Origin: Conexibacter woesei Iso977N
Lineage (GTDB): Bacteria > Actinomycetota > Thermoleophilia > Solirubrobacterales > Solirubrobacteraceae
Direction of reading: 5' to 3'
Length of the DNA: 64,000 nucleotides
Assembly (NCBI RefSeq): GCF_000424625.1
Contig: NZ_AUKG01000002.1
Location: forward strand, 1,674,001 to 1,738,000
A model generated the notes under the pieces. That model made no database searches and was not told the origin of the DNA. It saw only the letters and a program-made list of their open reading frames with translations. Shown piece by piece: positions 36,956 through 48,470 of the stretch. Positions within the stretch are counted from its first letter, which is position 1, and each line of letters opens with the position of its first letter. A program made the translations under genes and the position numbers.

Positions 36956-39900
36956 CTAGTGCGCGTACACCTCCAGCTCGTACAGCGAGTAGCCGTACGA
37001 CGTCGCGCGCTGCACACCGGTCAGCCGGACGTAGCGGGCCGGGACCGCCGCGCCGAACGCGTCGTCGTCGGTCCCGCCGTCGCCGGCGGTCGTCGCGTAG
37101 GCCTGCCTCCAGGACGTCCCGTCGGTGGACGTCTCGATCTTGTAGGCCTTGCCGTACGCGCTCTCCCAGCGCAGGATCGTCCGCGCGACGGTCCTGACCG
37201 AGCCGAGGTCGACGGTGATCGACTCGCCGTCCCTCCACGCCGACGCCCAGCGCGTCGACAGGTTCCCGTCGACCGCGTTGCTCGCCGGCAGCGTCGGCTG
37301 GAACAGCCCGTGCTGGTAGCTCGTCGCGCTCACCGGACGCCCGAGCGCCAGGTTGCTCACGTCATCCCCGCGCCCCGCCGGGAACGACACGACCTGCTGG
37401 TAGGTCGGCCGGTTCTGCCACGCGATCGCGTCGTCGGTCACGCCGCCCAGCGGCGACTGGACGATCGTGTCGGCGCACCACTGGTCGCCCGCCGAGCACG
37501 ACCTGTCACCCGGGTACGTGGTCGCCGCCGGCTCGCCGACCGCCGCCGCCAAGGACGACAACAACGTCGCGCGGCACTGCGACAGGTCGCCGCCGCCGCA
37601 GTACCTCACCGGCAGCCCGTTCTGGACCGGCTGCCCGAGCAGCGACCGCAGGTCCTTGTCGACGTAGCCCCACCAGCCGAACTGGAACGACGAGCCCTTG
37701 TGCGACTGCGCCTGGTTCGTCGAGACCGCGCCACCGGACACGTCGCCGTTCTGCCCGCCCGACGGCGACTCGTTGATCTGCAGCGCCCGGACCGTCTTGG
37801 CGTACAGGTCGTCGCCCATGCCCGGCCGGAACTCGGCGCTCACGAGCTTCGGCCACCACGCGTCGAACACCCGGATCGCGTCGGCGTCGACGTACCTCCT
37901 GTCGCCCTGCGCGGCCTCCACGCGCCGCGCGCCGTGGTCGAGCCACGTCCGCAACGCGCTCACCGCCGACGCCGTCGCCGGGTCGCTCGGCACGCCCCCG
38001 CTGTCGATCACCCTCAACAACGTCGGCAGCACGCGCGAGCCGCGCAGATCGGTCGTCGCCGCGTTCTCCATGATCTTGGTCAGCCCCGCGCGGTCGAGCT
38101 TCTGCCCCTGCGCCAGCGCCGTCTTGACGCCGCGGTCGAGCAGGTCGACGCGCTGCACCGACCCGTAGGAGAAGTTGCCGTCCGCCGCGCTGTAGCCCGG
38201 CGCCTGCTTGTTGTTCCAGGACACGAAGTAGTCCTGGTTGACGGCCTGCGGATGCTGGGCCGGCGGCGTGACGTCCTCCGTGTTGGTCGCCGGGTTCCAG
38301 TTGCGCCACTCGTACTGCGGCTCGGCCTTGACCGGCAGGTTCGGGTCGGCGCCCGCCGCCCGGACCGGGTTGCGGCCCGAGTCGTAGAAGGCGCTCTGGT
38401 GGTCGTTGACGTAGAACCAGTTGAACGCGAAGTCGATGTTGGAGGCGGCCGACTTGAAGCCGTCCGCGTCCTTCATGACGTCGGGGTCGTTGAGCATCTG
38501 GAAGCCGAGCGCCGAGTCGGCCTCGTGCAGGTAGGTCGAGCGCAGCGCCGTGTAGGCCACCGGCCTGCCGGCGCGCGTCGCGGTCCCGGTCACCAGGCCG
38601 TACTTGGTGCGATAGGTGACCAGGTTGTAGGACCCGCTCGCGGTGCCGTCGGCCAGCGTCGGCGACCAGGAGTCGGAGCGCTGCAGCTTCTCCATCGGCG
38701 TGCACGTCCCGTGGAACATGTAGGACTTGCTACTACGCGACGGCGTGCTGCCATCGGGCTCGCACAGCGTCACCGCGTAGGTGTCGGTGATGTCCTGCTC
38801 GGCCGACGTCGGCGACCACGCGTAGTCCGGGCCGCGTCCGATCTCCACGTAGAAGTTCAACCCCGAGAACGAGACGCCGCGGGCGCTGATGCCCGGGCCC
38901 TGCAGCTCCTCCTGCATCAGCAGCTGCGGCGCGAAGTAGCCGGTCTGCGGGCCGAAGACCGCGACCGGGTTGCCGCTCTTGGTGTTGGCGCCGGAGACGA
39001 CCAGCGCGTTGGACATGCCCTGGTGGTGGCCGCCGAGCTTGAGCCCCGGCATCGCGCCGCCGGAGAACATCCCGGCGAGCTTCTTGTACTTCTTGGGCAC
39101 GCCCTTGACGCGCAGCGAGCGCGCCTTCGCCGACGCCGCGGCCGCGCTGGCGCTCGCCGCGCTGCCCGTCGGGTCCTGGACGACGTCGCTGTCCTGCAGC
39201 GTCCCCGCGTCCGGCATCGCGACGCCGCTCGTGTCGCCCGGCGCGCTGCCGTACGGGAACCTCGTCCCGTCGTGGACGGTCGTCGTCGCCTCCGGGTCGT
39301 CCTGGTCGCGCAGCGCGGCCCAGACCCTGTCGCCCTGCGCGACGCCGTACTTGGCCTCCGCGGCCTGCTTGACGAGCGCCGAGTTCAGCTCCTCCCCGCC
39401 GCCGTTGCCGAACAGCCCGCCGATGACCGCGGCGATCGCGATCAGGTCGGTGCGCGTGAACGGCTCCGGGCCGCCGGCGTTGGTGATCGCGTCGGCGTGG
39501 CCGGTGACGACGTACTCGCCCGGGAACGTCCGGTCGCCGTGCGACTTCGAGATGTAGGCGTTGACGCCGTCGAGGTAGTCGTCGATGTCGCTCAGCAGCT
39601 GCGCGCCGCGCGGGCCGGAGTCCGCCAGCCGCTGGACCTGGGCCTGCAGGTCGTCCTCGGTGTAGGGCGCGGCGCGCCAGAGGTTCTGCTCCAGCACGCG
39701 GTTGCCGGGCGCGCCGCCCGCGAACGAGGTCAGCTCGCCGCGGCCGACGTGGCGCATCAGGTCCATCACGAACAGCCGGTCCTCGGCGCCCGCGTAGCCC
39801 GCGCCGAACTCGGTCCCGGCGCGCGTGGTGCCGGTGATGTGCGGGATGCCCCTGTCGTCACGGACGATCGTGACGTCGGCGCGCGGGCTGTAGGTCCTCT

Positions 39901-40219
39901 CGGCGCTCGTCGACGGGACCCCGAGCGACGCGTCGTTGAAGAAGTTGTTCAGGTTGCTGTCGGTCAGCGTGTTGGCGCCCTGGGTCAGCGCGGCGTACGG
40001 GCCGAGCTGGTCGTCGGTGTGCGCGGGCCGGACGCCGAGCGCCTTGTTGGCCAGGATCTCGGCCAGCGTCGCATGGCCGTTGGCGCCGGGCGGCAGGATG
40101 TCGGAGCACTGCCCGAGGCAGTAGTCGGGCGGTGCGGCCGCCGAGGCGAGCGTGGGTGTGAGCGCCAGGGCCGTGACGGCGGCGAGCGCGAGCACGACGC
40201 GGACGGTGCGTCGGATCAT
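36956..40219 (-). CDS. Secreted penicillin acylase family Ntn-hydrolase with C-terminal discoidin domain
   Basis: 1087-residue exported enzyme. A signal peptide (VRVVLALAAVTALALTPTLASA) is followed by the alpha-chain region with VTIVRDDRGIPHITG and YAGAEDRLFVMDLMRH, and a spacer that should be cut out. The new N-terminal nucleophile is Ser near 402 in GMSNALVVSG. The beta chain follows, and an F5/8 type C (discoidin) domain covers about 955-1087 (LGRPVSATSYQHG ... YELEVYAH). Such enzymes cleave acyl-amides, for example beta-lactams, acyl-homoserine lactones or lipopeptides; the substrate cannot be read here. Divergent from a PucR-like regulator. Confidence 0.9.
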   Translation of the reverse strand: MIRRTVRVVLALAAVTALALTPTLASAAAPPDYCLGQCSDILPPGANGHATLAEILANKALGVRPAHTDDQLGPYAALTQGANTLTDSNLNNFFNDASLGVPSTSAERTYSPRADVTIVRDDRGIPHITGTTRAGTEFGAGYAGAEDRLFVMDLMRHVGRGELTSFAGGAPGNRVLEQNLWRAAPYTEDDLQAQVQRLADSGPRGAQLLSDIDDYLDGVNAYISKSHGDRTFPGEYVVTGHADAITNAGGPEPFTRTDLIAIAAVIGGLFGNGGGEELNSALVKQAAEAKYGVAQGDRVWAALRDQDDPEATTTVHDGTRFPYGSAPGDTSGVAMPDAGTLQDSDVVQDPTGSAASASAAAASAKARSLRVKGVPKKYKKLAGMFSGGAMPGLKLGGHHQGMSNALVVSGANTKSGNPVAVFGPQTGYFAPQLLMQEELQGPGISARGVSFSGLNFYVEIGRGPDYAWSPTSAEQDITDTYAVTLCEPDGSTPSRSSKSYMFHGTCTPMEKLQRSDSWSPTLADGTASGSYNLVTYRTKYGLVTGTATRAGRPVAYTALRSTYLHEADSALGFQMLNDPDVMKDADGFKSAASNIDFAFNWFYVNDHQSAFYDSGRNPVRAAGADPNLPVKAEPQYEWRNWNPATNTEDVTPPAQHPQAVNQDYFVSWNNKQAPGYSAADGNFSYGSVQRVDLLDRGVKTALAQGQKLDRAGLTKIMENAATTDLRGSRVLPTLLRVIDSGGVPSDPATASAVSALRTWLDHGARRVEAAQGDRRYVDADAIRVFDAWWPKLVSAEFRPGMGDDLYAKTVRALQINESPSGGQNGDVSGGAVSTNQAQSHKGSSFQFGWWGYVDKDLRSLLGQPVQNGLPVRYCGGGDLSQCRATLLSSLAAAVGEPAATTYPGDRSCSAGDQWCADTIVQSPLGGVTDDAIAWQNRPTYQQVVSFPAGRGDDVSNLALGRPVSATSYQHGLFQPTLPASNAVDGNLSTRWASAWRDGESITVDLGSVRTVARTILRWESAYGKAYKIETSTDGTSWRQAYATTAGDGGTDDDAFGAAVPARYVRLTGVQRATSYGYSLYELEVYAH

Positions 40220-40334: not shown

Positions 40335-41576
40335 ATGGAGGCGGGAGGAGCGTCGGCGTCAGGACACGCCGCCCGGATCGGCGACGTCGACCTCGCCGCG
40401 CTGCTCGCCGTCCACGTCGAGGAGCTGGCCGACGACGTGCTCGAGCGCTTCGCCGCCGGAGCCGGGCCGGACGGCGCGCCGGACGCCGCGACGCTGCGCA
40501 ACCTGCGCCTCGGCGCCCGCGCCGCGGTCGAGCGCTTCCTCGCGCGCCTGCGCGGCGACGCGCTCCCGGACGAGGGCGTCGCGCTGTTCGTCGCGCACGG
40601 GCGCGCGCAGCAGGCCGCGGGCCGGACGCTCACCGAGTTGTTGTCGTTCTACCGCCTCGGCGGGCTGGCGATGTGGGAGCGCTCGACCGCGCTGCTGCCC
40701 CAGGACGCGTCGCTGCCCGCGGCCGAGACGTTCGCGTTCGGCCGCGCGGTGCTGGAGCTTGTTGATGAACTCAGCGTCGCCGCCGCCGCGGGCTTCAGCG
40801 CCCAGGAGGCCGAGGCGCGGCGCCGCGACCGCGCGCTGCGCGAGCGGCTCGTCTCGCTGCTGCTCTCCAACCCGCCGGTCGGCGACGACGTCCTGCGCAG
40901 CGCGGCCGCCGCGGCCGGCTGGACGCTGCCCAACGACGTCCGCGTCGCGGTCGCCGCGCTGCCGGCCGACCCGCTCGCGGTGCCCGCCGGTCCCGGCCCG
41001 GACCGCGTCCTGACCGCGACGGTCCCGGACGGGCGCCTCGCGCTCGTGGTCGCCGACGACGCCGAGGCCGAGCGCTGGCTCGCGCGCGCGATGACCGCTC
41101 TGGGCCTGGAGGCGCCGCTGGCGATCGGGCCCGCCGTGCAGGCGCCGCACGCCGCGCGCTCGGTCGCCCGCGCGGTCGCGCTGCTGGACCACGTGCGCGC
41201 GGGGACGCTGCGCCCCTCCGACGATCCCGACGGCATCGTCCGCGCCGACGACCACGAGCTCGCGCTGCTGCTCGGCGCCGCGCCGGACCTGGCCCGCGAG
41301 GTCGCCGCGCGCCGGCTGGCGCCGCTCGACACGCTCGACGCCGCGGCGCGCGAGCGGCTCACCGCAACCCTCGCCGCCTGGCTCGCCGACCCCGGCCGGC
41401 CGCAGGCGATGGCCGACCGCCTCGGCCTCCACGTCCAGACCGTCCGCTACCGGTTGAGGGCCCTGCGCGAGCTGTTCGGCCCCGCGCTCGAGGACCCCGA
41501 CGCGCGCTTCGAGCTGGCGCTCGCGCTGCGCGTCGGAGCGGGCGATCAGCCCTCCAGGTCGAGCACCGCGTCGTAG
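40335..41576 (+). CDS. PucR-like transcriptional regulator
   Basis: 413 residues. The C-terminal PucR-type helix-turn-helix reads ADRLGLHVQTVRYRLRALRE, and a GGDEF-like central region precedes it (LVVADDAEAERWLARAM). The N-terminal helical region (about 20-160) resembles the RsbR-like or globin-like sensor arms found in this family. It probably controls the divergent acylase gene or itself through the inverted repeats between them (inferred). The start ATG 40335 lacks a Shine-Dalgarno site. The 3' end overlaps the next gene by 31 bases. Confidence 0.85.
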   Translation: MEAGGASASGHAARIGDVDLAALLAVHVEELADDVLERFAAGAGPDGAPDAATLRNLRLGARAAVERFLARLRGDALPDEGVALFVAHGRAQQAAGRTLTELLSFYRLGGLAMWERSTALLPQDASLPAAETFAFGRAVLELVDELSVAAAAGFSAQEAEARRRDRALRERLVSLLLSNPPVGDDVLRSAAAAAGWTLPNDVRVAVAALPADPLAVPAGPGPDRVLTATVPDGRLALVVADDAEAERWLARAMTALGLEAPLAIGPAVQAPHAARSVARAVALLDHVRAGTLRPSDDPDGIVRADDHELALLLGAAPDLAREVAARRLAPLDTLDAAARERLTATLAAWLADPGRPQAMADRLGLHVQTVRYRLRALRELFGPALEDPDARFELALALRVGAGDQPSRSSTAS

Positions 41577-41937: not shown

Positions 41938-41986
41938 GTTCGATTCCCATCGAATCTTCGCTATGATGGTTCGACGTCTTTCGAAC
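41938..41986 (+). promoter_or_regulatory. Promoter of MFS gene flanked by two operator palindromes
   Basis: GTTCGA-N6-TCGAAT (41938-41955) and GTTCGA-N6-TCGAAC (41969-41986) are near-identical palindromes centred 31 bases apart. A -10-like TATGAT lies between them at 41962-41967; a 17-base spacer puts the -35 region inside the first palindrome. This is the layout of a repressor-controlled promoter of TetR or MarR type. No such regulator is encoded next to it. Confidence 0.65.
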
Positions 41987-42007: not shown

Positions 42008-43258
42008 ATGACCGCCATTCCCTCTCCCCGCACCCTGTCTCACCGCATGCCCACGCTCTCGCGCGGAGCCTCCTTCTGGATGCTCGTCGCGACGCTCGGC
42101 TTCCTGCTCTTCGCCTCCAGCGCGCCGTCGCCGTTGTACATCGTCTACCAGGCGAAGTGGCACTTCTCCCCGATCACGCTGACCAGCGTGTTCGCCGTCT
42201 ACGCCGTCGCGTTGTTGCTGGCGTTGATCTTCGCCGGGTCGCTGAGCGACCGCGTCGGCCGCCGGCCGGTGCTGCTCGGCGCGCTCGCGGTGCAGCTCGT
42301 CGCGATGGTCCTGTTCGGCCTCGCGCACGGCGTCGGCGCGCTGTTCGCGGCCCGGATCGTCCAGGGCGTCGCGACCGGCGTCGGCATGGGCGCGATCTCC
42401 GCGGCGCTGATCGACCTCGCGCCGAAGCACCGCCCGCACCTCGGCGCGGTCCTGTCGGCCGCCGCGCCGCCGTTCGGCCTGGCGCTCGGCGCGCTCGGCT
42501 CCGGGCTGCTCGTCGAGTACGCGCCGGACCCGCTGCGCCTCGTCTACTGGCTGCTGACCGGCGTGTTCGTGCTGGCGATCGCCGGGACCCTGGCGATGCC
42601 GGAGACCGTGCAGCGCTCGGCCGGCGCCTCGCTGCGCTCGACGTTCTCGCCGTCGATCGGGATCCCGCCCCAGGCGCGCGCCTCGTTCCTGGCCGGCGCG
42701 CCGGTCCTGCTGGCGACGTGGGCGCTCGGCGGCCTGTACCTGTCGCTCGGCCCGTCGCTGGTCGCGGGCGTGCTGGGCAACTCCAGCCACGTGATCGGCG
42801 CGCTGGTCGTCGTGGCCGTCGCCGGGACCGGCTCGATCGCGAGCCTGCTCGTCGCCAACCGGCACCCGTCGCACGTCCTGATCGGCGGCGCGCTGGCGCT
42901 GGCGCTCGGCATCGGGATCACGTTGTTGGGGTTGAACGACGGGATCACGTCGCTGTTCTTCATCGGCAGCGTCATCGCGGGCGTCGGCTTCGGCGCCGGG
43001 TTCAGCGGTGGCTTCAAGTCCACCGTGTCGCTCGCGCCGCCGACCGAGCGCGCGTCGCTGGTCGCCGCGGTCTACGTGCTCTGCTACGGCGGGTTCTCGA
43101 TCCCGGCGGTCGCCGCCGGCGTCGCGGTCTCGCACGCGGGGCTGCTCGCCACGACCAACGTGTACGGGTCGGTCCTCGTGGTGCTGGCCCTCGGGGCGGC
43201 CGCCGCGACGCTGGCGCGCCACCGCCGCGCGACGGCGACGGCCGCCGTGGCCGCCTAG
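42008..43258 (+). CDS. MFS transporter
   Basis: 416-residue major facilitator with about 12 transmembrane helices. The motif A loop between helices 2 and 3 is GSLSDRVGRRPVLL. Helices such as FWMLVATLGFLLFASSAPS and SVLVVLALGAAAATLA are plain. It is most like drug or metabolite exporters; the substrate is unknown. ATG 42008 follows AGGA with a 7-base gap. Its promoter lies between two operator palindromes. It shares the four bases CTAG with the stop codon of the convergent DUF11 gene. Confidence 0.9.
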   Translation: MTAIPSPRTLSHRMPTLSRGASFWMLVATLGFLLFASSAPSPLYIVYQAKWHFSPITLTSVFAVYAVALLLALIFAGSLSDRVGRRPVLLGALAVQLVAMVLFGLAHGVGALFAARIVQGVATGVGMGAISAALIDLAPKHRPHLGAVLSAAAPPFGLALGALGSGLLVEYAPDPLRLVYWLLTGVFVLAIAGTLAMPETVQRSAGASLRSTFSPSIGIPPQARASFLAGAPVLLATWALGGLYLSLGPSLVAGVLGNSSHVIGALVVVAVAGTGSIASLLVANRHPSHVLIGGALALALGIGITLLGLNDGITSLFFIGSVIAGVGFGAGFSGGFKSTVSLAPPTERASLVAAVYVLCYGGFSIPAVAAGVAVSHAGLLATTNVYGSVLVVLALGAAAATLARHRRATATAAVAA

Positions 43259-46200
43259 AGCGCGCCCGGATCCCCGAGGCGGTTGGACGCCTGCTGCTTG
43301 GCCGCGCACGTCCTGTACGCGCGCGACCAGCGCAGCGCCCGGCCGCCGCGCAGCGTCGCCCGGACCGTGAAGCGATAGGTCGCCCGCGGCGCGCCGCGCA
43401 GGTCGACGGTCGCCACCCAGCGGCCGTCGGCGCGCCTGCGGACCGCGATCCGGCGCCCCTGCACCGTGACGCTTGCGCGGACGATCGTGCGCCCGCGCCG
43501 CTCGCGCAGGCGGATGACGAAGCGCCGCTTGGAGGTACAGGACGCCGCGACGGTCAGCGGCGGCGACCCCTGGCCGCCGACGCTCGGCGGCGAGGCCGGG
43601 ACGGCCGGCGTCTCGCCCGGCGCGGGCGCGGCGGGCGCCTCGGCAGGCGGCGGCGCAGCGGCGCACGCGTCGCCGCACGGCGCGACCGCCACGTCGGCCT
43701 CGGCCTCCGGCGCGTCCGCACTGTCGTCGCTCGTCGCGGTCGCGCGGTTGACGACCGTCGTCCCCGCGGCGGCCGTCGTGACCGTCACGGGGATCGCGAA
43801 CGCGCGCTCCGCGCCCGCCGCGATCGCGGCGGCGCGGCACGTCACGGTCCCGGCGTCGGCGGCGCAGCCGTCCGGCAGACCGCCCGCGACCGCCAGGCCC
43901 GCGGGCAGCGGGTCGGTCACGACGACGCCTTGCGTGTCGGCGTCGCCCGTGTCGCGCGCGGTCAAGGTGTAGGTGATGGTGTCGCCGACCGCTGCGGTGG
44001 GCGTGTCCACCGACTTGCTCAGCACCAGCGCGCTCGTTCCGGGCGTGAACGTGACCGCCGCCAGGTTGTTGGAGAAGTCCTCCTCGGCCGCCTGGCCGGC
44101 GACCGCCGCCGTGTTGGTCACCGGCGTCCCGGCACTCCCGGCCGCCAGCCGCCCGGTGATCCGGAACACGCGCTCGCCGCCGACCTCCAGCTGCGGGATC
44201 GCGCACTGCGGCAGGTCGCGCGGCGCCCCGGGGAACGGGCCGACCTGGCAGTCGCCGGTCGCGCCACCGCCGGCCTCGGCCCTCACGTCCTGCAGCGCGT
44301 CCGGGATCAGGTCCGCGACGGCGACATCGGTCACCTGCGGGCCGTTGTTGCGCACGGTCACCGTGTAGGTCACGAGCCCGCCCGCGGCCGGGTGCGCGGG
44401 TGTGAACGACTTCGTGATCGAGAGGTCGGTGACCGGGACCGTGTCGAACGTCGAGGACGCCTTGTCGTTGCTCGGGTCGGTGTCGGTCGCCGACCCGGCG
44501 CTGACCGTCGCGGTGTTGGTCACCGTCTGGCCGGGCGGGTACGGCGGGATCGTCGTGGCCAGCGTGCCACGGACGGTGACCGTGACGCTCTCGCCGGCGG
44601 CCAGCGGCCCGGCGTCGCAGCGGACGGTCTGCGCGTCGGGCGTGTCGCAGGGCCCGCGCGGCGAGACGCCCGAGCCGCCGAGCAGCGCGGCGGGCAGGTG
44701 GTCGACGACCGTCGCCTCCGGCGCGGTGTCGGGGCCGTGGTTGGTGACCACGAGCGTGAAGACGACGTCCTCGCCGGGGACGTACCGGTCCGCGGTGGTC
44801 GCCGGGGCGCTCGAGGTCGTCTTGGTCAGCGCGAGGTCGACGTCCGGCGTCGAGACCGCGCCCGCGTCGATGGCCGTGTCGTCGCTCGCGTCGCCGTCGG
44901 GCGCCGCGCTCACCGTCGCGGCGTTGGAGATCTCGCCGGCCGGCGCGCCGGCCGCGACGCGCACGGGGATCCGGATCGGCGGGTAGTCGGCGCCGGGCGC
45001 CAGCGCGTCGGCGCGCGTGCATGCGATCGCGCGCGTGCCGGTGCAGGTCCAGCCCGCGCCGGTCGCGGGGCCGGTGGCGGTGAGGGCGGCGTCGAGCGTG
45101 TCGGTCACGCGCACGGTCCCGCTCGACGCGGCGTCGCCCGCGTTGGTGACGTCGAGCGTGTAGGTCGAGGTGCCGCCGCTGACCAGCGCGGGGCTGTGGG
45201 ACTTGCCGATCGCGAGGTCCGGGACCGCGATGGCGGTCCGCGCGGGCGCGGTGGTCACGCGGTCGCGGGTGCCGAGGTCCTCGGCGGTGAAGGCGACGTC
45301 GGCCGCGTTGTCGATCACCGTGCCGGTCGTCAACCCGCCGGTGGCGACGCGCACGCTGAGACCGACGACGCGGGTCGCACCCGGAGCGAGCGTGCCGAGC
45401 GCGAGCGCGGCCGGGTCGGCACCGGGCACGGCGGTGCCGTCGACCGTGACCGAGCCGGGGACGAGCGTGACGCCGGCCGGGAGGTCGTCGGCGAACACGA
45501 CGCCGGTCGCCGCGTCCTCGCCGCTGTTGCGGATCGTGGTCGTGTAGGTCAGCACGTCGCCGAGCCCGGCGGCGGACCTGTCCACCGTCTTGGTCGCGGT
45601 GATGCGCGGCGCGTGCAGGTCGGTGGCGATCGTCACCACGCCGGGCTGGTAGGCGTCGCCCCTCGTGCTGAGCTTGACCGCTGTGGAGGTCTGCCCGTTG
45701 CCGAGCAGGTTGGTGGTGTCGAGCTGGTGGACGTCGAAGCCGAGCTGGTTGTCGTAGGCCGGGTCGCGCAGGCGGTCGTCGGCGCCGTCGATGGTGATCG
45801 CCGAGCGGAACGCGTTGTTGGACGGCGCGCCCTGGGGCAGGCCGACGTCGCCGGCCGGGCTCTGAAGCGTCACGGCGTCGCCGGTCGTGTTGCGGTCGCC
45901 CTCGTAGGCGACGATGCCGGCGCGCGAGCGGACGGTGCCGGTCGTCGGCGTCCGGAACCCCGACAGCGCGATGGTGACCGGGGCGGTCAGCGTCGTGCTG
46001 ACGTTCTGGAGGCCGTCGAAGACCGCCAGGCTGCGCGGCGGCGCGGCCTGGTCGCCGTAGGCGACGACCAGCGACCAGCCGGCGAGCTGGGCGTCGTTGC
46101 GCCCGGTGCCGGCCTGCAGGTCGGCGACCGTGTACTCGCCGCCGCCCGCGTCGCGGACCGCGCCGGTGACGTCGGCGAAGCCCTGGTAGATGTCGCCCGC

Positions 46201-46662
46201 CTCGTCGACCTGGGACGCGGTGACCGAGTTGTAGGTGTCGCTCCCGGGTGCGCGCAGCAGGACGCGGCCGCGGGCGGACGCGTCGGGCGCAGCGGCGCCG
46301 CCGATCCCGGCCTTCGTGCGCGCGCCCCAGTAGAGGCCGGCGAACAGGACGTGGGCGGTGGTCGGGAGCGTGAGCGTCGCGGCGCTGGAGTCGAACGTGG
46401 CGGGGTCGCTGTCGACGTCGACGTAGGACATCAACGTGGTGTTGTTGTTCAACGTGTTGCCGGGCGCGGTGCCGTCGCGGATCGCGGCGCAGCTGACGTC
46501 GACCGTGATGCAGCTCAGCGCGGTGTTGGCGGCGATCGCGACGTCGCCCTGCGCGTTGGCGGTGAAGCGCGGTGCGAAGGCGCGCTCGGCCTGCGCGGAG
46601 GCGGCGGCCAGCAGCATCAAGACCACCAACCACCCTGCTGCGACCCCTGCCCGAGCACGCAT
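43255..46662 (-). CDS. Secreted DUF11-repeat surface protein
   Basis: 1135 residues with a signal peptide (GVAAGWLVVLMLLAAASAQA). An N-terminal domain of about 310 residues is followed by at least five DUF11 repeats starting near 352, 482, 604, 745 and 879 (typical phrases LTYTTTIRNSGEDAATGVVF and VTYTVTVRNNGPQVTDVAVA). A Pro/Ala linker and a basic C-terminal domain near 1040-1135 (CTSKRRFVIRLRERRG ... RAYRTC) end the protein. DUF11 stacks form extended beta-sandwich stalks on cell surfaces. No sortase motif or C-terminal membrane helix is seen, so attachment may be through the basic end domain. Confidence 0.88.
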   Translation of the reverse strand: MRARAGVAAGWLVVLMLLAAASAQAERAFAPRFTANAQGDVAIAANTALSCITVDVSCAAIRDGTAPGNTLNNNTTLMSYVDVDSDPATFDSSAATLTLPTTAHVLFAGLYWGARTKAGIGGAAAPDASARGRVLLRAPGSDTYNSVTASQVDEAGDIYQGFADVTGAVRDAGGGEYTVADLQAGTGRNDAQLAGWSLVVAYGDQAAPPRSLAVFDGLQNVSTTLTAPVTIALSGFRTPTTGTVRSRAGIVAYEGDRNTTGDAVTLQSPAGDVGLPQGAPSNNAFRSAITIDGADDRLRDPAYDNQLGFDVHQLDTTNLLGNGQTSTAVKLSTRGDAYQPGVVTIATDLHAPRITATKTVDRSAAGLGDVLTYTTTIRNSGEDAATGVVFADDLPAGVTLVPGSVTVDGTAVPGADPAALALGTLAPGATRVVGLSVRVATGGLTTGTVIDNAADVAFTAEDLGTRDRVTTAPARTAIAVPDLAIGKSHSPALVSGGTSTYTLDVTNAGDAASSGTVRVTDTLDAALTATGPATGAGWTCTGTRAIACTRADALAPGADYPPIRIPVRVAAGAPAGEISNAATVSAAPDGDASDDTAIDAGAVSTPDVDLALTKTTSSAPATTADRYVPGEDVVFTLVVTNHGPDTAPEATVVDHLPAALLGGSGVSPRGPCDTPDAQTVRCDAGPLAAGESVTVTVRGTLATTIPPYPPGQTVTNTATVSAGSATDTDPSNDKASSTFDTVPVTDLSITKSFTPAHPAAGGLVTYTVTVRNNGPQVTDVAVADLIPDALQDVRAEAGGGATGDCQVGPFPGAPRDLPQCAIPQLEVGGERVFRITGRLAAGSAGTPVTNTAAVAGQAAEEDFSNNLAAVTFTPGTSALVLSKSVDTPTAAVGDTITYTLTARDTGDADTQGVVVTDPLPAGLAVAGGLPDGCAADAGTVTCRAAAIAAGAERAFAIPVTVTTAAAGTTVVNRATATSDDSADAPEAEADVAVAPCGDACAAAPPPAEAPAAPAPGETPAVPASPPSVGGQGSPPLTVAASCTSKRRFVIRLRERRGRTIVRASVTVQGRRIAVRRRADGRWVATVDLRGAPRATYRFTVRATLRGGRALRWSRAYRTCAAKQQASNRLGDPGAL

Positions 46663-46802
46663 GCCGCGGCCGACGGTAGGGCCCGCGAGCGGTCACGGCA
46701 ACCGACCTGACGCCGTTGCGCTCGGCCACCGGAAACCGGCGGTTTGCGGGGAGATCGCCCGCCGACCTCACGGAATCGCGGGGTGGCGCGTTGGAGGGCT
46801 CG

Positions 46803-47456
46803 ATGAGACTCCACACCTACGCCGCCTCGTGCAACGCCTACAAGGTCCGCCTGCTGCTCGCGCAGCTCGGCCGCGGCGACGTCGAGCAGATCGAGCACGA
46901 CATCTTCGCCGGTGCGACGCTGACCGACGAGTTCGCGCGGCTCAACCCGGCGCGCACCGTGCCGGTGCTGGAGCTCGACGACGGCTGGGCGCTGCCGGAG
47001 TCCGGCGCGATCCTGTGGTTCCTGGCCGAGGGGACGCCGCTGCTGCCGGACTCGCCGCTGGCGCGCGCCGAGGTACTGCGCTGGCTGCTGTGGGAGCAGG
47101 CCGACCTGCTCCCGGCGACCGGCGGGCTGCGCTTCCGGCTGATCACGGGGCGCTGGTCGGCGGGCGACGCCGCGGCGCGGGCGCGGCACGCTGCGGGTCT
47201 GGAAGCACTGGGGCTCCTTGACTCGCACCTGCGCGCGTCGCGGTCCGGGTGGGTCGTGGGCAACGCCTACACCATCGCGGACATCGCGCTGTACGGCTAC
47301 ACGCACGTGGCCGGCCAGGCCGGATTGCCGCTGGAGGACTTCCCGGCCGTCGTCGAATGGCTGACGCGCGTGGCGTGCACGCCGGGCTACATGAACGACG
47401 TGCAGCCGTACGGGGCCAACGCGCGGCGGCTGGAAGGCCGGTCGATCTACGGATAG
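46803..47456 (+). CDS. Glutathione S-transferase family protein
   Basis: 217 residues. The N-terminal thioredoxin-like domain has LHTYAASCNAYKVRLLLAQL and the substrate-site phrase NPARTVPVLELDDGWALPESGAI. The C-terminal helical domain has GNAYTIADIALYGYTH, the conserved N-capping box. Actinobacteria usually lack glutathione, so the thiol partner is uncertain. GGAGGG lies 3-4 bases before ATG 46803. The sigma factor gene follows 12 bases later on the same strand, suggesting co-transcription. Confidence 0.9.
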   Translation: MRLHTYAASCNAYKVRLLLAQLGRGDVEQIEHDIFAGATLTDEFARLNPARTVPVLELDDGWALPESGAILWFLAEGTPLLPDSPLARAEVLRWLLWEQADLLPATGGLRFRLITGRWSAGDAAARARHAAGLEALGLLDSHLRASRSGWVVGNAYTIADIALYGYTHVAGQAGLPLEDFPAVVEWLTRVACTPGYMNDVQPYGANARRLEGRSIYG

Positions 47457-47468
47457 CCTCTGGTCCCG

Positions 47469-48470
47469 ATGCCACCCGTCCACGCAGGCGAGCCGACGAT
47501 CGAGCGGGAGCTGGAGACCCACCGCAGGGCGCTGACCGGCTACTGCTACCGGATGCTCGGCTCGGGCTCGGAGGCCGAGGACGCGGTGCAGGAGACGATG
47601 GTGCGCGCGTGGCGCAACGCCGACGCGCTCCAGGAGCCGGCCGCGCTGAAGGCGTGGCTGTACCGGATCGCGTCGAACGTGTGCTTCGACATGCTGCAGA
47701 CGCCGCAGCGGCGGGCGACGCCGATGGACATGGGACCGGCGTCCGCCGCCGATGCCTCCCTGGGCGACGCGCTGGACTCGTGGGTGCAGCCGATCGCCGA
47801 CGCGCGCGTGCTCCCGGCCGACGGCGCCGCGGGCGGCGACCCGGCGGCGATCGCCGCGGGGCGCGAGACGCTGCGGCTGGCGTTCGTCGCCGCCCTGCAG
47901 CACCTGCCGCCCAAACAGCGCGCGGTGCTGATCCTGCGCGAGGTGCTGCGCTGGCAGGCGAGCGAGGTCGCCGAGCTGCTGGACACCTCGGTCGCGTCGG
48001 TCAACTCCGCGCTGCAGCGCGCGCGGGCGACGCTCGAAGAGCTCGACCTCGACGCCGCGGGCGGCGTCAGCTCGGTGGTCGACGGCGACGCCGAGCAGCA
48101 GAACCTCCTGGCGCGCTACGTCGACGCGTTCGAGCGCTATGACATGACCGAGTTGGTGGCCTTGCTCCAGCGCGACGCGGCGTTCTCGATGCCGCCGTTC
48201 CCGCTCTGGGTCCAGGGCCACGACGACATCGTCACGTTCATGACGACGACCGGCGCCAAGTGCGAGGGGTCGAAGCTCGTGCCGACGTCAGCCAACGGCG
48301 GGCCGGCGGTCGGGATCTACAACCCGCGCGAAGACGGCACGTTCGCGCCGTGGGCGATCGTGGTGGTCGAGACCTCAGGGGGGAAGATCTCGGGGCTGCA
48401 CCACTTCATCTACCCCGAGCTGTTCCCGTACTTCGGGCTGCCCGAGCGGCTCGAGGCCGATCTGGCCTGA
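47469..48470 (+). CDS. ECF-type sigma factor with SnoaL-like C-terminal domain
   Basis: 333 residues. Sigma region 2 is at about 10-80 (RRALTGYCYRMLGSGSEAED, then AVQETMVRAWRN). Region 4 is at about 140-190 (LPPKQRAVLILREVLRWQAS, then EVAELLDTSVASVNSALQRA). A SnoaL/NTF2-like domain covers about 200-330 (MTELVALLQRDAAFSMPPFP). This is the SigG/TIGR02960-type group, where the C-terminal domain modulates activity in place of a separate anti-sigma factor; none is encoded beside it. The last 96 bases are also the antisense coding end of the STAS-like gene. Confidence 0.92.
   Translation: MPPVHAGEPTIERELETHRRALTGYCYRMLGSGSEAEDAVQETMVRAWRNADALQEPAALKAWLYRIASNVCFDMLQTPQRRATPMDMGPASAADASLGDALDSWVQPIADARVLPADGAAGGDPAAIAAGRETLRLAFVAALQHLPPKQRAVLILREVLRWQASEVAELLDTSVASVNSALQRARATLEELDLDAAGGVSSVVDGDAEQQNLLARYVDAFERYDMTELVALLQRDAAFSMPPFPLWVQGHDDIVTFMTTTGAKCEGSKLVPTSANGGPAVGIYNPREDGTFAPWAIVVVETSGGKISGLHHFIYPELFPYFGLPERLEADLA

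What the first reader, a model, noticed from the sequence alone, without database searches (positions are those of the whole stretch)
41938..41986. Paired GTTCGA-N6-TCGAAC operators around the MFS promoter, with no neighbouring regulator
Two near-identical palindromes, centred 31 bases apart, flank a TATGAT -10 element. This is typical of TetR/MarR control of an exporter, but the genes on either side encode no such protein. The regulator must be elsewhere and could control a wider set of genes.
Basis: seen in the sequence. Interest (0 to 1): 0.55.

Follow-up and report, generated by a model that had tools for sequence, protein, structure and literature searches.

The report
Operators of an unlinked ArsR-type repressor
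Two matching DNA switches in front of an exporter-like gene are most likely bound by a small repressor protein encoded elsewhere in the same genome, and the same switch sequence sits in front of the genes of this repressor family in many other bacteria.

Summary
In detail: GTTCGA-N6-TCGAAC copies at 41938-41955 (one mismatch) and 41969-41986 (perfect), centres 31 bp apart, flank TATGAT before an MFS gene (ATG 42008). TetR/MarR is not supported. The best regulator is an unlinked 102-aa ArsR-family protein (G000:C4:274100-274405), the only own-genome match of its kind at E<=1e-10, with a perfect palindrome ending 20 bp before its start. A same-genus MFS orthologue keeps both sites at the same spacing. 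Upstream of 80 named relatives of this ArsR the motif is exact in 17 and within one mismatch in 36; 179 permuted controls average 0 and 0.03. Operator type follows the recognition helix. In 14 of 30 MFS-homologue loci an ArsR relative is divergently adjacent. Other likely targets: an F420-type LLM oxidoreductase (5 of 5 close same-genus orthologues), a MsnO8-like LLM enzyme, more MFS exporters, a small ORF before an SDR gene. Closest solved relative: RexT, a thiol-sensing repressor. Binding, repression and signal are inferred. A PucR-type regulator gene is adjacent, so "no neighbouring regulator" is wrong as worded.

The parts
41938..41955 (.). upstream operator, GTTCGATTCCCATCGAAT (one mismatch); overlaps the place of a -35 element
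   Evidence: kept in the G001 orthologue as GTTCGATGACTTTCGAAG
41969..41986 (.). downstream operator, GTTCGACGTCTTTCGAAC (perfect); covers the expected transcription start
   Evidence: kept in the G001 orthologue as GTTCGACGTCTCTCGAAC
41962..41967 (+). -10-like hexamer TATGAT (TTCGAT at 41939-41944 would be a poor -35 at 17 bp)
   Evidence: sequence and identity in G001; the consensus scan gave no promoter
42008..43258 (+). MFS transporter gene (416 aa), the controlled gene
   Evidence: Pfam MFS_1 E=2.6e-25; only weak matches to drug-efflux families, below NCBIfam cut-offs; start supported by the G001 orthologue
40335..41576 (+). PucR-type regulator gene (HTH_30), upstream neighbour; not the likely owner of the palindromes
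   Evidence: found beside the MFS homologue in 2 of 30 loci (own and G001, within the flanks held)

Best explanation
The two palindromes are operators of a RexT-like ArsR-family repressor encoded elsewhere in the genome (G000:C4:274100-274405). A dimer binds each GTTCGA-N6-TCGAAC site; the upstream site covers the -35 place and the downstream one the expected start of transcription, about three helical turns apart, so RNA polymerase is kept off the MFS promoter. The repressor also represses itself and a small scattered regulon: an F420-type LLM oxidoreductase, a MsnO8-like LLM enzyme, a small ORF upstream of an SDR gene and, in relatives, further MFS exporters. Release is probably triggered by a toxic or thiol-reactive small molecule acting at the single Cys (Cys40). 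Shown by sequence: the sites, their conservation, their linkage to the ArsR gene, their co-variation with its recognition helix. Inferred: binding, repression, the signal.
For: (1) One own-genome protein of this kind at E<=1e-10, and a perfect palindrome ending 20 bp before its start. (2) Of 30 ArsR loci fetched (own included; 78 matches in 59 of 121 genomes) 20 have a copy with <=1 mismatch within 180 bp upstream. (3) 80 named loci: 17 exact, 36 at <=1, 52 at <=2 mismatches from 150 bp upstream to 6 bases inside the gene; 179 permuted half-sites give means 0/0.03/0.39, maxima 0/1/4; of exact arms with spacers 0-15, 17 loci at 6 and 1 at 14. (4) Recognition-helix co-variation: T-R-S-H-H class 23 of 24 with a <=1-mismatch GTTCGA operator, 0 with GTTCCA; S-Y-H class 0 of 15 with GTTCGA, 7 of 15 with GTTCCA-N6-TGGAAC. 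(5) In 14 of 30 MFS-homologue loci an ArsR relative is divergently adjacent. (6) F420-type LLM: 5 of 5 close same-genus orthologues (66-100% identity) have a perfect operator just upstream. (7) Of 20 genomes with an exact GTTCGAYNNNNRTCGAAC, 18 have the ArsR; of the 101 others, 41 (Fisher p=3.7e-5); the backwards control has 0 in 121. (8) RexT, the closest solved relative (E=8.2e-29), is reported to bind ATTCG-N15-CGAAT, the same half-site core (PMC8960804 section 7).
Against: No binding or expression data. Perfect own-genome copies (4) are only modestly above the rough expectation (1.2). The same-genus genome G006, which has no such ArsR at E<=1e-10, still has 5 places at <=1 mismatch against 1 for the control (0 exact), so loose matches are not specific. 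28 of 30 MFS-homologue loci (53% identity or less) lack the GTTCGA pair at <=1 mismatch, and 14 of 19 LLM loci lack the operator, one of them a second same-genus copy, L131. 5 of 30 ArsR loci and 28 of 80 have no match within 2 mismatches; 43 of 74 proteins of the T-x-S-H-H class have no operator at <=1. Two of the 20 genomes with an exact motif lack the ArsR, and several exact copies in relatives look like chance hits inside genes. The loci are related, so counts are not independent. RexT's published spacing (N15) differs from N6.
Confidence: 0.87

Rival explanations
1. A TetR or MarR regulator encoded elsewhere binds the pair.
For: Palindrome size and promoter position would suit such a protein. 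A MarR-type gene (NCBIfam MarR-family matches below cut-off) lies 2.7 kb from the LLM operator in L012.
Against: The promoter side of that MarR gene, printed, shows no GTTCGA palindrome by eye; the motif is tied to ArsR genes in relatives and other phyla and changes with the ArsR helix.
Confidence: 0.06
2. The adjacent PucR-type regulator (40335-41576) controls the MFS gene through these sites.
For: Adjacent, and syntenic with the MFS gene in G001, 83% identical.
Against: Found beside 2 of 30 MFS loci (flanks of about 1.5 kb, shorter at contig ends); no operator in the 300 bp before its own gene (best 3 mismatches); it does not explain the same palindrome at ArsR and LLM genes.
Confidence: 0.04
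3. The palindromes are chance TTCGA-rich sequence without function.
For: The half-site is common in this genome; <=2-mismatch matches in the window are at the chance level.
Against: Both sites and their spacing are kept in the orthologue while the DNA further upstream has diverged; cross-phylum linkage to ArsR genes.
Confidence: 0.03

Closest known systems
RexT of Nostoc/Anabaena PCC 7120 (ArsR-SmtB family; PDB 7txm, 7txn, 7txo)
   Same: Closest solved sequence (E=8.2e-29; 56% identity to the stretch aligned); TTCG half-site core; the Cys matching RexT Cys41 is present.
   Different: RexT Cys40 is Val here and this protein has a single Cys, so the vicinal disulfide of RexT cannot form; operator spacer N6 instead of the published N15; likely targets are exporters and LLM enzymes, not thioredoxin.
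PyeR of Pseudomonas aeruginosa (ArsR repressor of pyeR-pyeM-xenB)
   Same: ArsR-family repressor, autorepressing, over an MFS transporter and a xenobiotic reductase (PMC7950407 passages).
   Different: There one operon; here targets scattered over the genome. PyeR's operator and its sequence relation to this protein were not tested.
Metal-sensing ArsR/SmtB repressors (SmtB, CadC, ArsR)
   Same: Same winged-helix family (Pfam HTH_5 E=2.8e-8); SmtB, CadC and ArsR chains are the next, much weaker PDB matches.
   Different: Below the cut-off of NCBIfam HTH_metalloreg (49.6 of 55 bits); one Cys only; no metal-site motif seen by eye.

Membership tests
ArsR family | ArsR-type winged HTH by curated profile | tested here: met
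   Pfam HTH_5 33.9 bits (cut-off 22) and HTH_20 30.4 (cut-off 27)
RexT-like ArsR group | closest sequence relation to RexT among solved proteins | tested here: met
   7txm E=8.2e-29, next 3.5e-6; membership of the RexT cluster of PMC8960804 itself was not tested
RexT-like ArsR group | Cys at RexT position 41 | tested here: met
   alignment with RexT; Cys in 121 of 122 subfamily proteins
RexT proper (vicinal disulfide switch) | Cys40-Cys41 pair | tested here: not met
   Val39-Cys40 in this protein; Cys at the first position in 2 of 122
RexT proper | thioredoxin gene beside the regulator | tested here: not met
   frames around the ArsR gene in L014 (read by eye, not profiled) show a permease-like gene upstream and no thioredoxin; thioredoxin is the divergent neighbour in 3 of 63 scanned frames
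Metal-sensing SmtB/ArsR | NCBIfam metalloregulator cut-off | tested here: not met
   49.6 of 55 bits
TetR or MarR control | TetR/MarR gene with the palindrome directly upstream | tested here: not met
   none among the 11 own-genome places at <=1 mismatch, by reading the frames (not all profiled); a search at 2 or more mismatches was not made
Autoregulated repressor | binding to its own promoter and to target promoters | not testable with these tools
   site position only

The most novel reading that the evidence does not exclude
GTTCGA-N6-TCGAAC is the shared DNA code of a large, mostly unstudied ArsR subfamily in several phyla, with one near-invariant Cys, whose members sense thiol-reactive toxicants (quinones, antibiotics, oxidants) with a switch that does without RexT's second Cys, and which control exporters together with flavin or F420 oxidoreductases; a few recognition-helix positions tune the code between GTTCGA and GTTCCA operators.
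Probability: 0.45. Interest if true: 0.65.

Novelty: new member of a known kind. Interest (0 to 1): 0.5.

Why it matters
It turns an orphan operator pair into a testable regulon with a named regulator, and gives an operator sequence for an ArsR group whose closest characterised protein is RexT. The 2022 RexT paper (PMC8960804 section 11) puts 7085 sequences in RexT's cluster and calls RexT the only member studied; that the present protein belongs to that cluster is my inference. With the motif, targets of such repressors can be listed in other genomes, and what ArsR proteins with a lone conserved Cys sense becomes open to simple reporter tests.

Tried and rejected
Rejected: TetR/MarR ownership; PucR ownership. 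tRNA or rRNA origin of the hits: no tRNA in L012-L020 and one tmRNA in L013 about 4 kb from the site; one rRNA match, in L009, about 600 bp from the site (10 of the 11 loci given, L010 left out because it overlaps L003). Own-genome hits judged unrelated by position: L017, L019, L020 inside listed frames, L018 18 bp behind a gene. The site before a PIG-L gene (L016, L135) is kept in two species but is a direct repeat of GTTCGAA, so left out of the regulon. Relatives' exact hits L051, L052, L054, L060, L067, L068, L069 have no convincing target and were not counted as regulon; likewise the 1-mismatch hits in L136-L141 and L143. Extra ArsR paralogues of G001 in L146 and L147 lie in stretches with no <=1-mismatch site.

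Literature: the searches (open-access library, capped listings) showed no paper giving this motif for this ArsR group. Seen: PMC8960804 abstract and outline and sections 7, 8, 11; passages only of PMC7950407, PMC13421787, PMC9137774, PMC11009283, PMC9416677, the last two showing no such motif in the passages found; the rest as listings. Ehira and Ohmori 2012 (RexT) was not read. A structure prediction was not obtained.

Full report
What is there. The window holds GTTCGATTCCCATCGAAT at 41938-41955 and GTTCGACGTCTTTCGAAC at 41969-41986, centres 31 bp apart, with TATGAT at 41962-41967 between them. The next gene is an MFS transporter, ATG 42008 (Pfam MFS_1 E=2.6e-25). The consensus promoter scan found nothing, so the -10 is supported by its hexamer and by its identity in the orthologue. 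The upstream gene is a PucR-type regulator, so a regulator gene is in fact adjacent, though not TetR/MarR.

Is it chance? Within the window the count of <=2-mismatch matches (3) is what chance gives (3.78). In the genome, 11 places match at <=1 mismatch against 1 for the backwards pattern, but the half-site is common here and independence alone would give about 1.2 perfect copies against 4 seen. In the six same-genus genomes the counts at <=1 mismatch are 14, 8, 4, 4, 2 and 5 against controls of 2, 2, 0, 0, 1 and 1; the last pair is G006, which has no such ArsR, so loose counts are not specific. Counting is weak evidence. Conservation is strong: in G001 the MFS orthologue (75% identity) has both palindromes and TATGAT at the same spacing, whereas the DNA further upstream has diverged.

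Who binds it. The 4 perfect copies lie before the MFS gene, across the start of an F420-type LLM oxidoreductase (L012; TIGR03620 314.6 bits, cut-off 219.8), before a small ORF upstream of an SDR gene (L013), and ending 20 bp before a 102-aa ArsR-family protein (L014). A one-mismatch copy lies 9 bp before a MsnO8-like LLM gene next to a DHA2-type MFS gene (L015; TIGR03558 417.5 bits, cut-off 166.95; TIGR00711 265.1, cut-off 230.2), and the identical site lies before what reads as its orthologue in G001 (L134, by eye). The ArsR is the only own-genome match at E<=1e-10 (weaker ArsR relatives were not followed). Of 121 genomes searched 59 have such a protein, with 78 matches.

Footprint across relatives. 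Of the 30 ArsR loci fetched, 20 have a palindrome with <=1 mismatch within 180 bp upstream, 5 more at 2 mismatches, 5 none (L032 and L033 code for the same protein). Over all loci then held, 16 distinct pairs at <=1 mismatch lie 27-35 or 42 bp apart, near three or four helical turns; not all of these are before ArsR genes. The F420-type LLM search (73 genomes) gave 19 loci in 17 genomes: the five close same-genus orthologues (G000, G001, G002, G004, G005) all have a perfect operator just upstream, the 14 others have none at <=1 mismatch, among them a second, 50%-identical copy in G005. Exact GTTCGAYNNNNRTCGAAC occurs in 20 of 121 genomes, the backwards control in 0; 18 of these 20 have the ArsR, against 41 of the other 101 (p=3.7e-5). 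Sites near further exporter genes: exact in G001 (L132, Pfam MFS_1) and G068 (L063, Pfam MFS_1), one mismatch in G001 (L133, TIGR00711 230.1 bits, cut-off 230.2) and, with the same site sequence, G004 (L112, by eye); and an exact site at the start of a MsnO8-like LLM gene in G044 (L061, TIGR03558 459.2).

MFS and ArsR as neighbours. In 14 of 30 MFS-homologue loci fetched (of 49 matches) an ArsR relative is divergently adjacent, so the pairing of this exporter type with this repressor type recurs; in the window species the partner lies elsewhere. PucR was found beside 2 of 30.

Across phyla. From 150 bp upstream to 6 bases inside the gene, GTTCGA-N6-TCGAAC is exact in 17 of 80, <=1 mismatch in 36, <=2 in 52; 179 permuted half-sites give means 0, 0.03, 0.39 and maxima 0, 1, 4. 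The exact cases include Micromonospora, Paenibacillus, Bacillus, Cohnella, Phyllobacterium and Candidatus Solibacter; close species count several times. Of 63 divergent frames scanned, 28 match MFS_1, 5 zinc-binding dehydrogenase, 3 thioredoxin, 3 EamA, 2 ABM, and 3 are elongation factor G; 17 of the 80 loci gave no usable frame. Of four cyanobacterial loci printed, L163 and L181 show ATTCGA-N5-TCGAAT by eye; L180 has GTTCGT-N6-ACGAAC and L167 no clean palindrome.

Recognition code. Over 122 distinct proteins from the named and unnamed loci: class T-R-S-H-H, 24 proteins, 23 with a <=1-mismatch GTTCGA operator (18 exact), 0 GTTCCA; class T-x-S-H-H, 74, 31 GTTCGA (11 exact), 0 GTTCCA, 43 neither; class S-Y-H, 15, 0 GTTCGA, 7 GTTCCA, 8 neither; other, 9, neither. 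Upstream DNA and helix change together, which argues that these proteins bind these sites.

How it likely works. A dimer on each palindrome would cover the -35 place and the transcription start of the MFS promoter; two sites three turns apart allow cooperative binding (inferred). The signal is inferred from RexT: its proposed peroxidatic Cys41 (PMC8960804 section 8) corresponds to Cys40 here, a Cys in 121 of 122 proteins, but the partner Cys is absent in this protein and in all but 2 of 122. So RexT's disulfide is excluded here; oxidation, mixed disulfide or alkylation of the single Cys, or a non-covalent ligand, remain. Exporters plus LLM and dehydrogenase enzymes as targets or neighbours fit a toxicant-responsive regulon, as in P. 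aeruginosa PyeR, an autorepressor over an MFS gene and a xenobiotic reductase (PMC7950407 passages).

Origin. The best named matches are Patulibacter and Solirubrobacter, so the window is probably from the Solirubrobacterales (inference; the own record is not named).

Verdict. A new member of a known kind, with a cross-phylum operator sequence that I did not find in print in the searches listed under Tried and rejected.

Noticed in passing
L016 6024-6041 and L135 2028-2045: A GTTCGAA-N3-GTTCGAAA direct repeat is kept before what read as orthologous PIG-L genes in the own genome (Pfam) and G001 (by eye); another regulator's site by its look.
   Followed up: partly
L112 959-976 and L133 1999-2016: The same one-mismatch site sequence lies at the start of DHA2-like MFS genes in two same-genus genomes; in L112 a flavin monooxygenase-like gene (by eye) is divergent.
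   Followed up: partly
window 36956-40219: Penicillin-amidase-family protein with a C-terminal F5/8 type C domain.
   Followed up: no
window 43255-46662: 1135-aa protein with five DUF11 stretches, convergent to the MFS gene; between MFS and GST in the G001 locus only fragments match it.
   Followed up: no
window 46716-48470: GST gene followed by a sigma-70-family (ECF-like) gene with a SnoaL-like C-terminal domain; the GST is near the MFS gene in G001 too.
   Followed up: no
L013 5787-5993: 69-aa ORF behind a perfect operator and a GGAGG ribosome site, no Pfam match and no relative in the loci held.
   Followed up: partly
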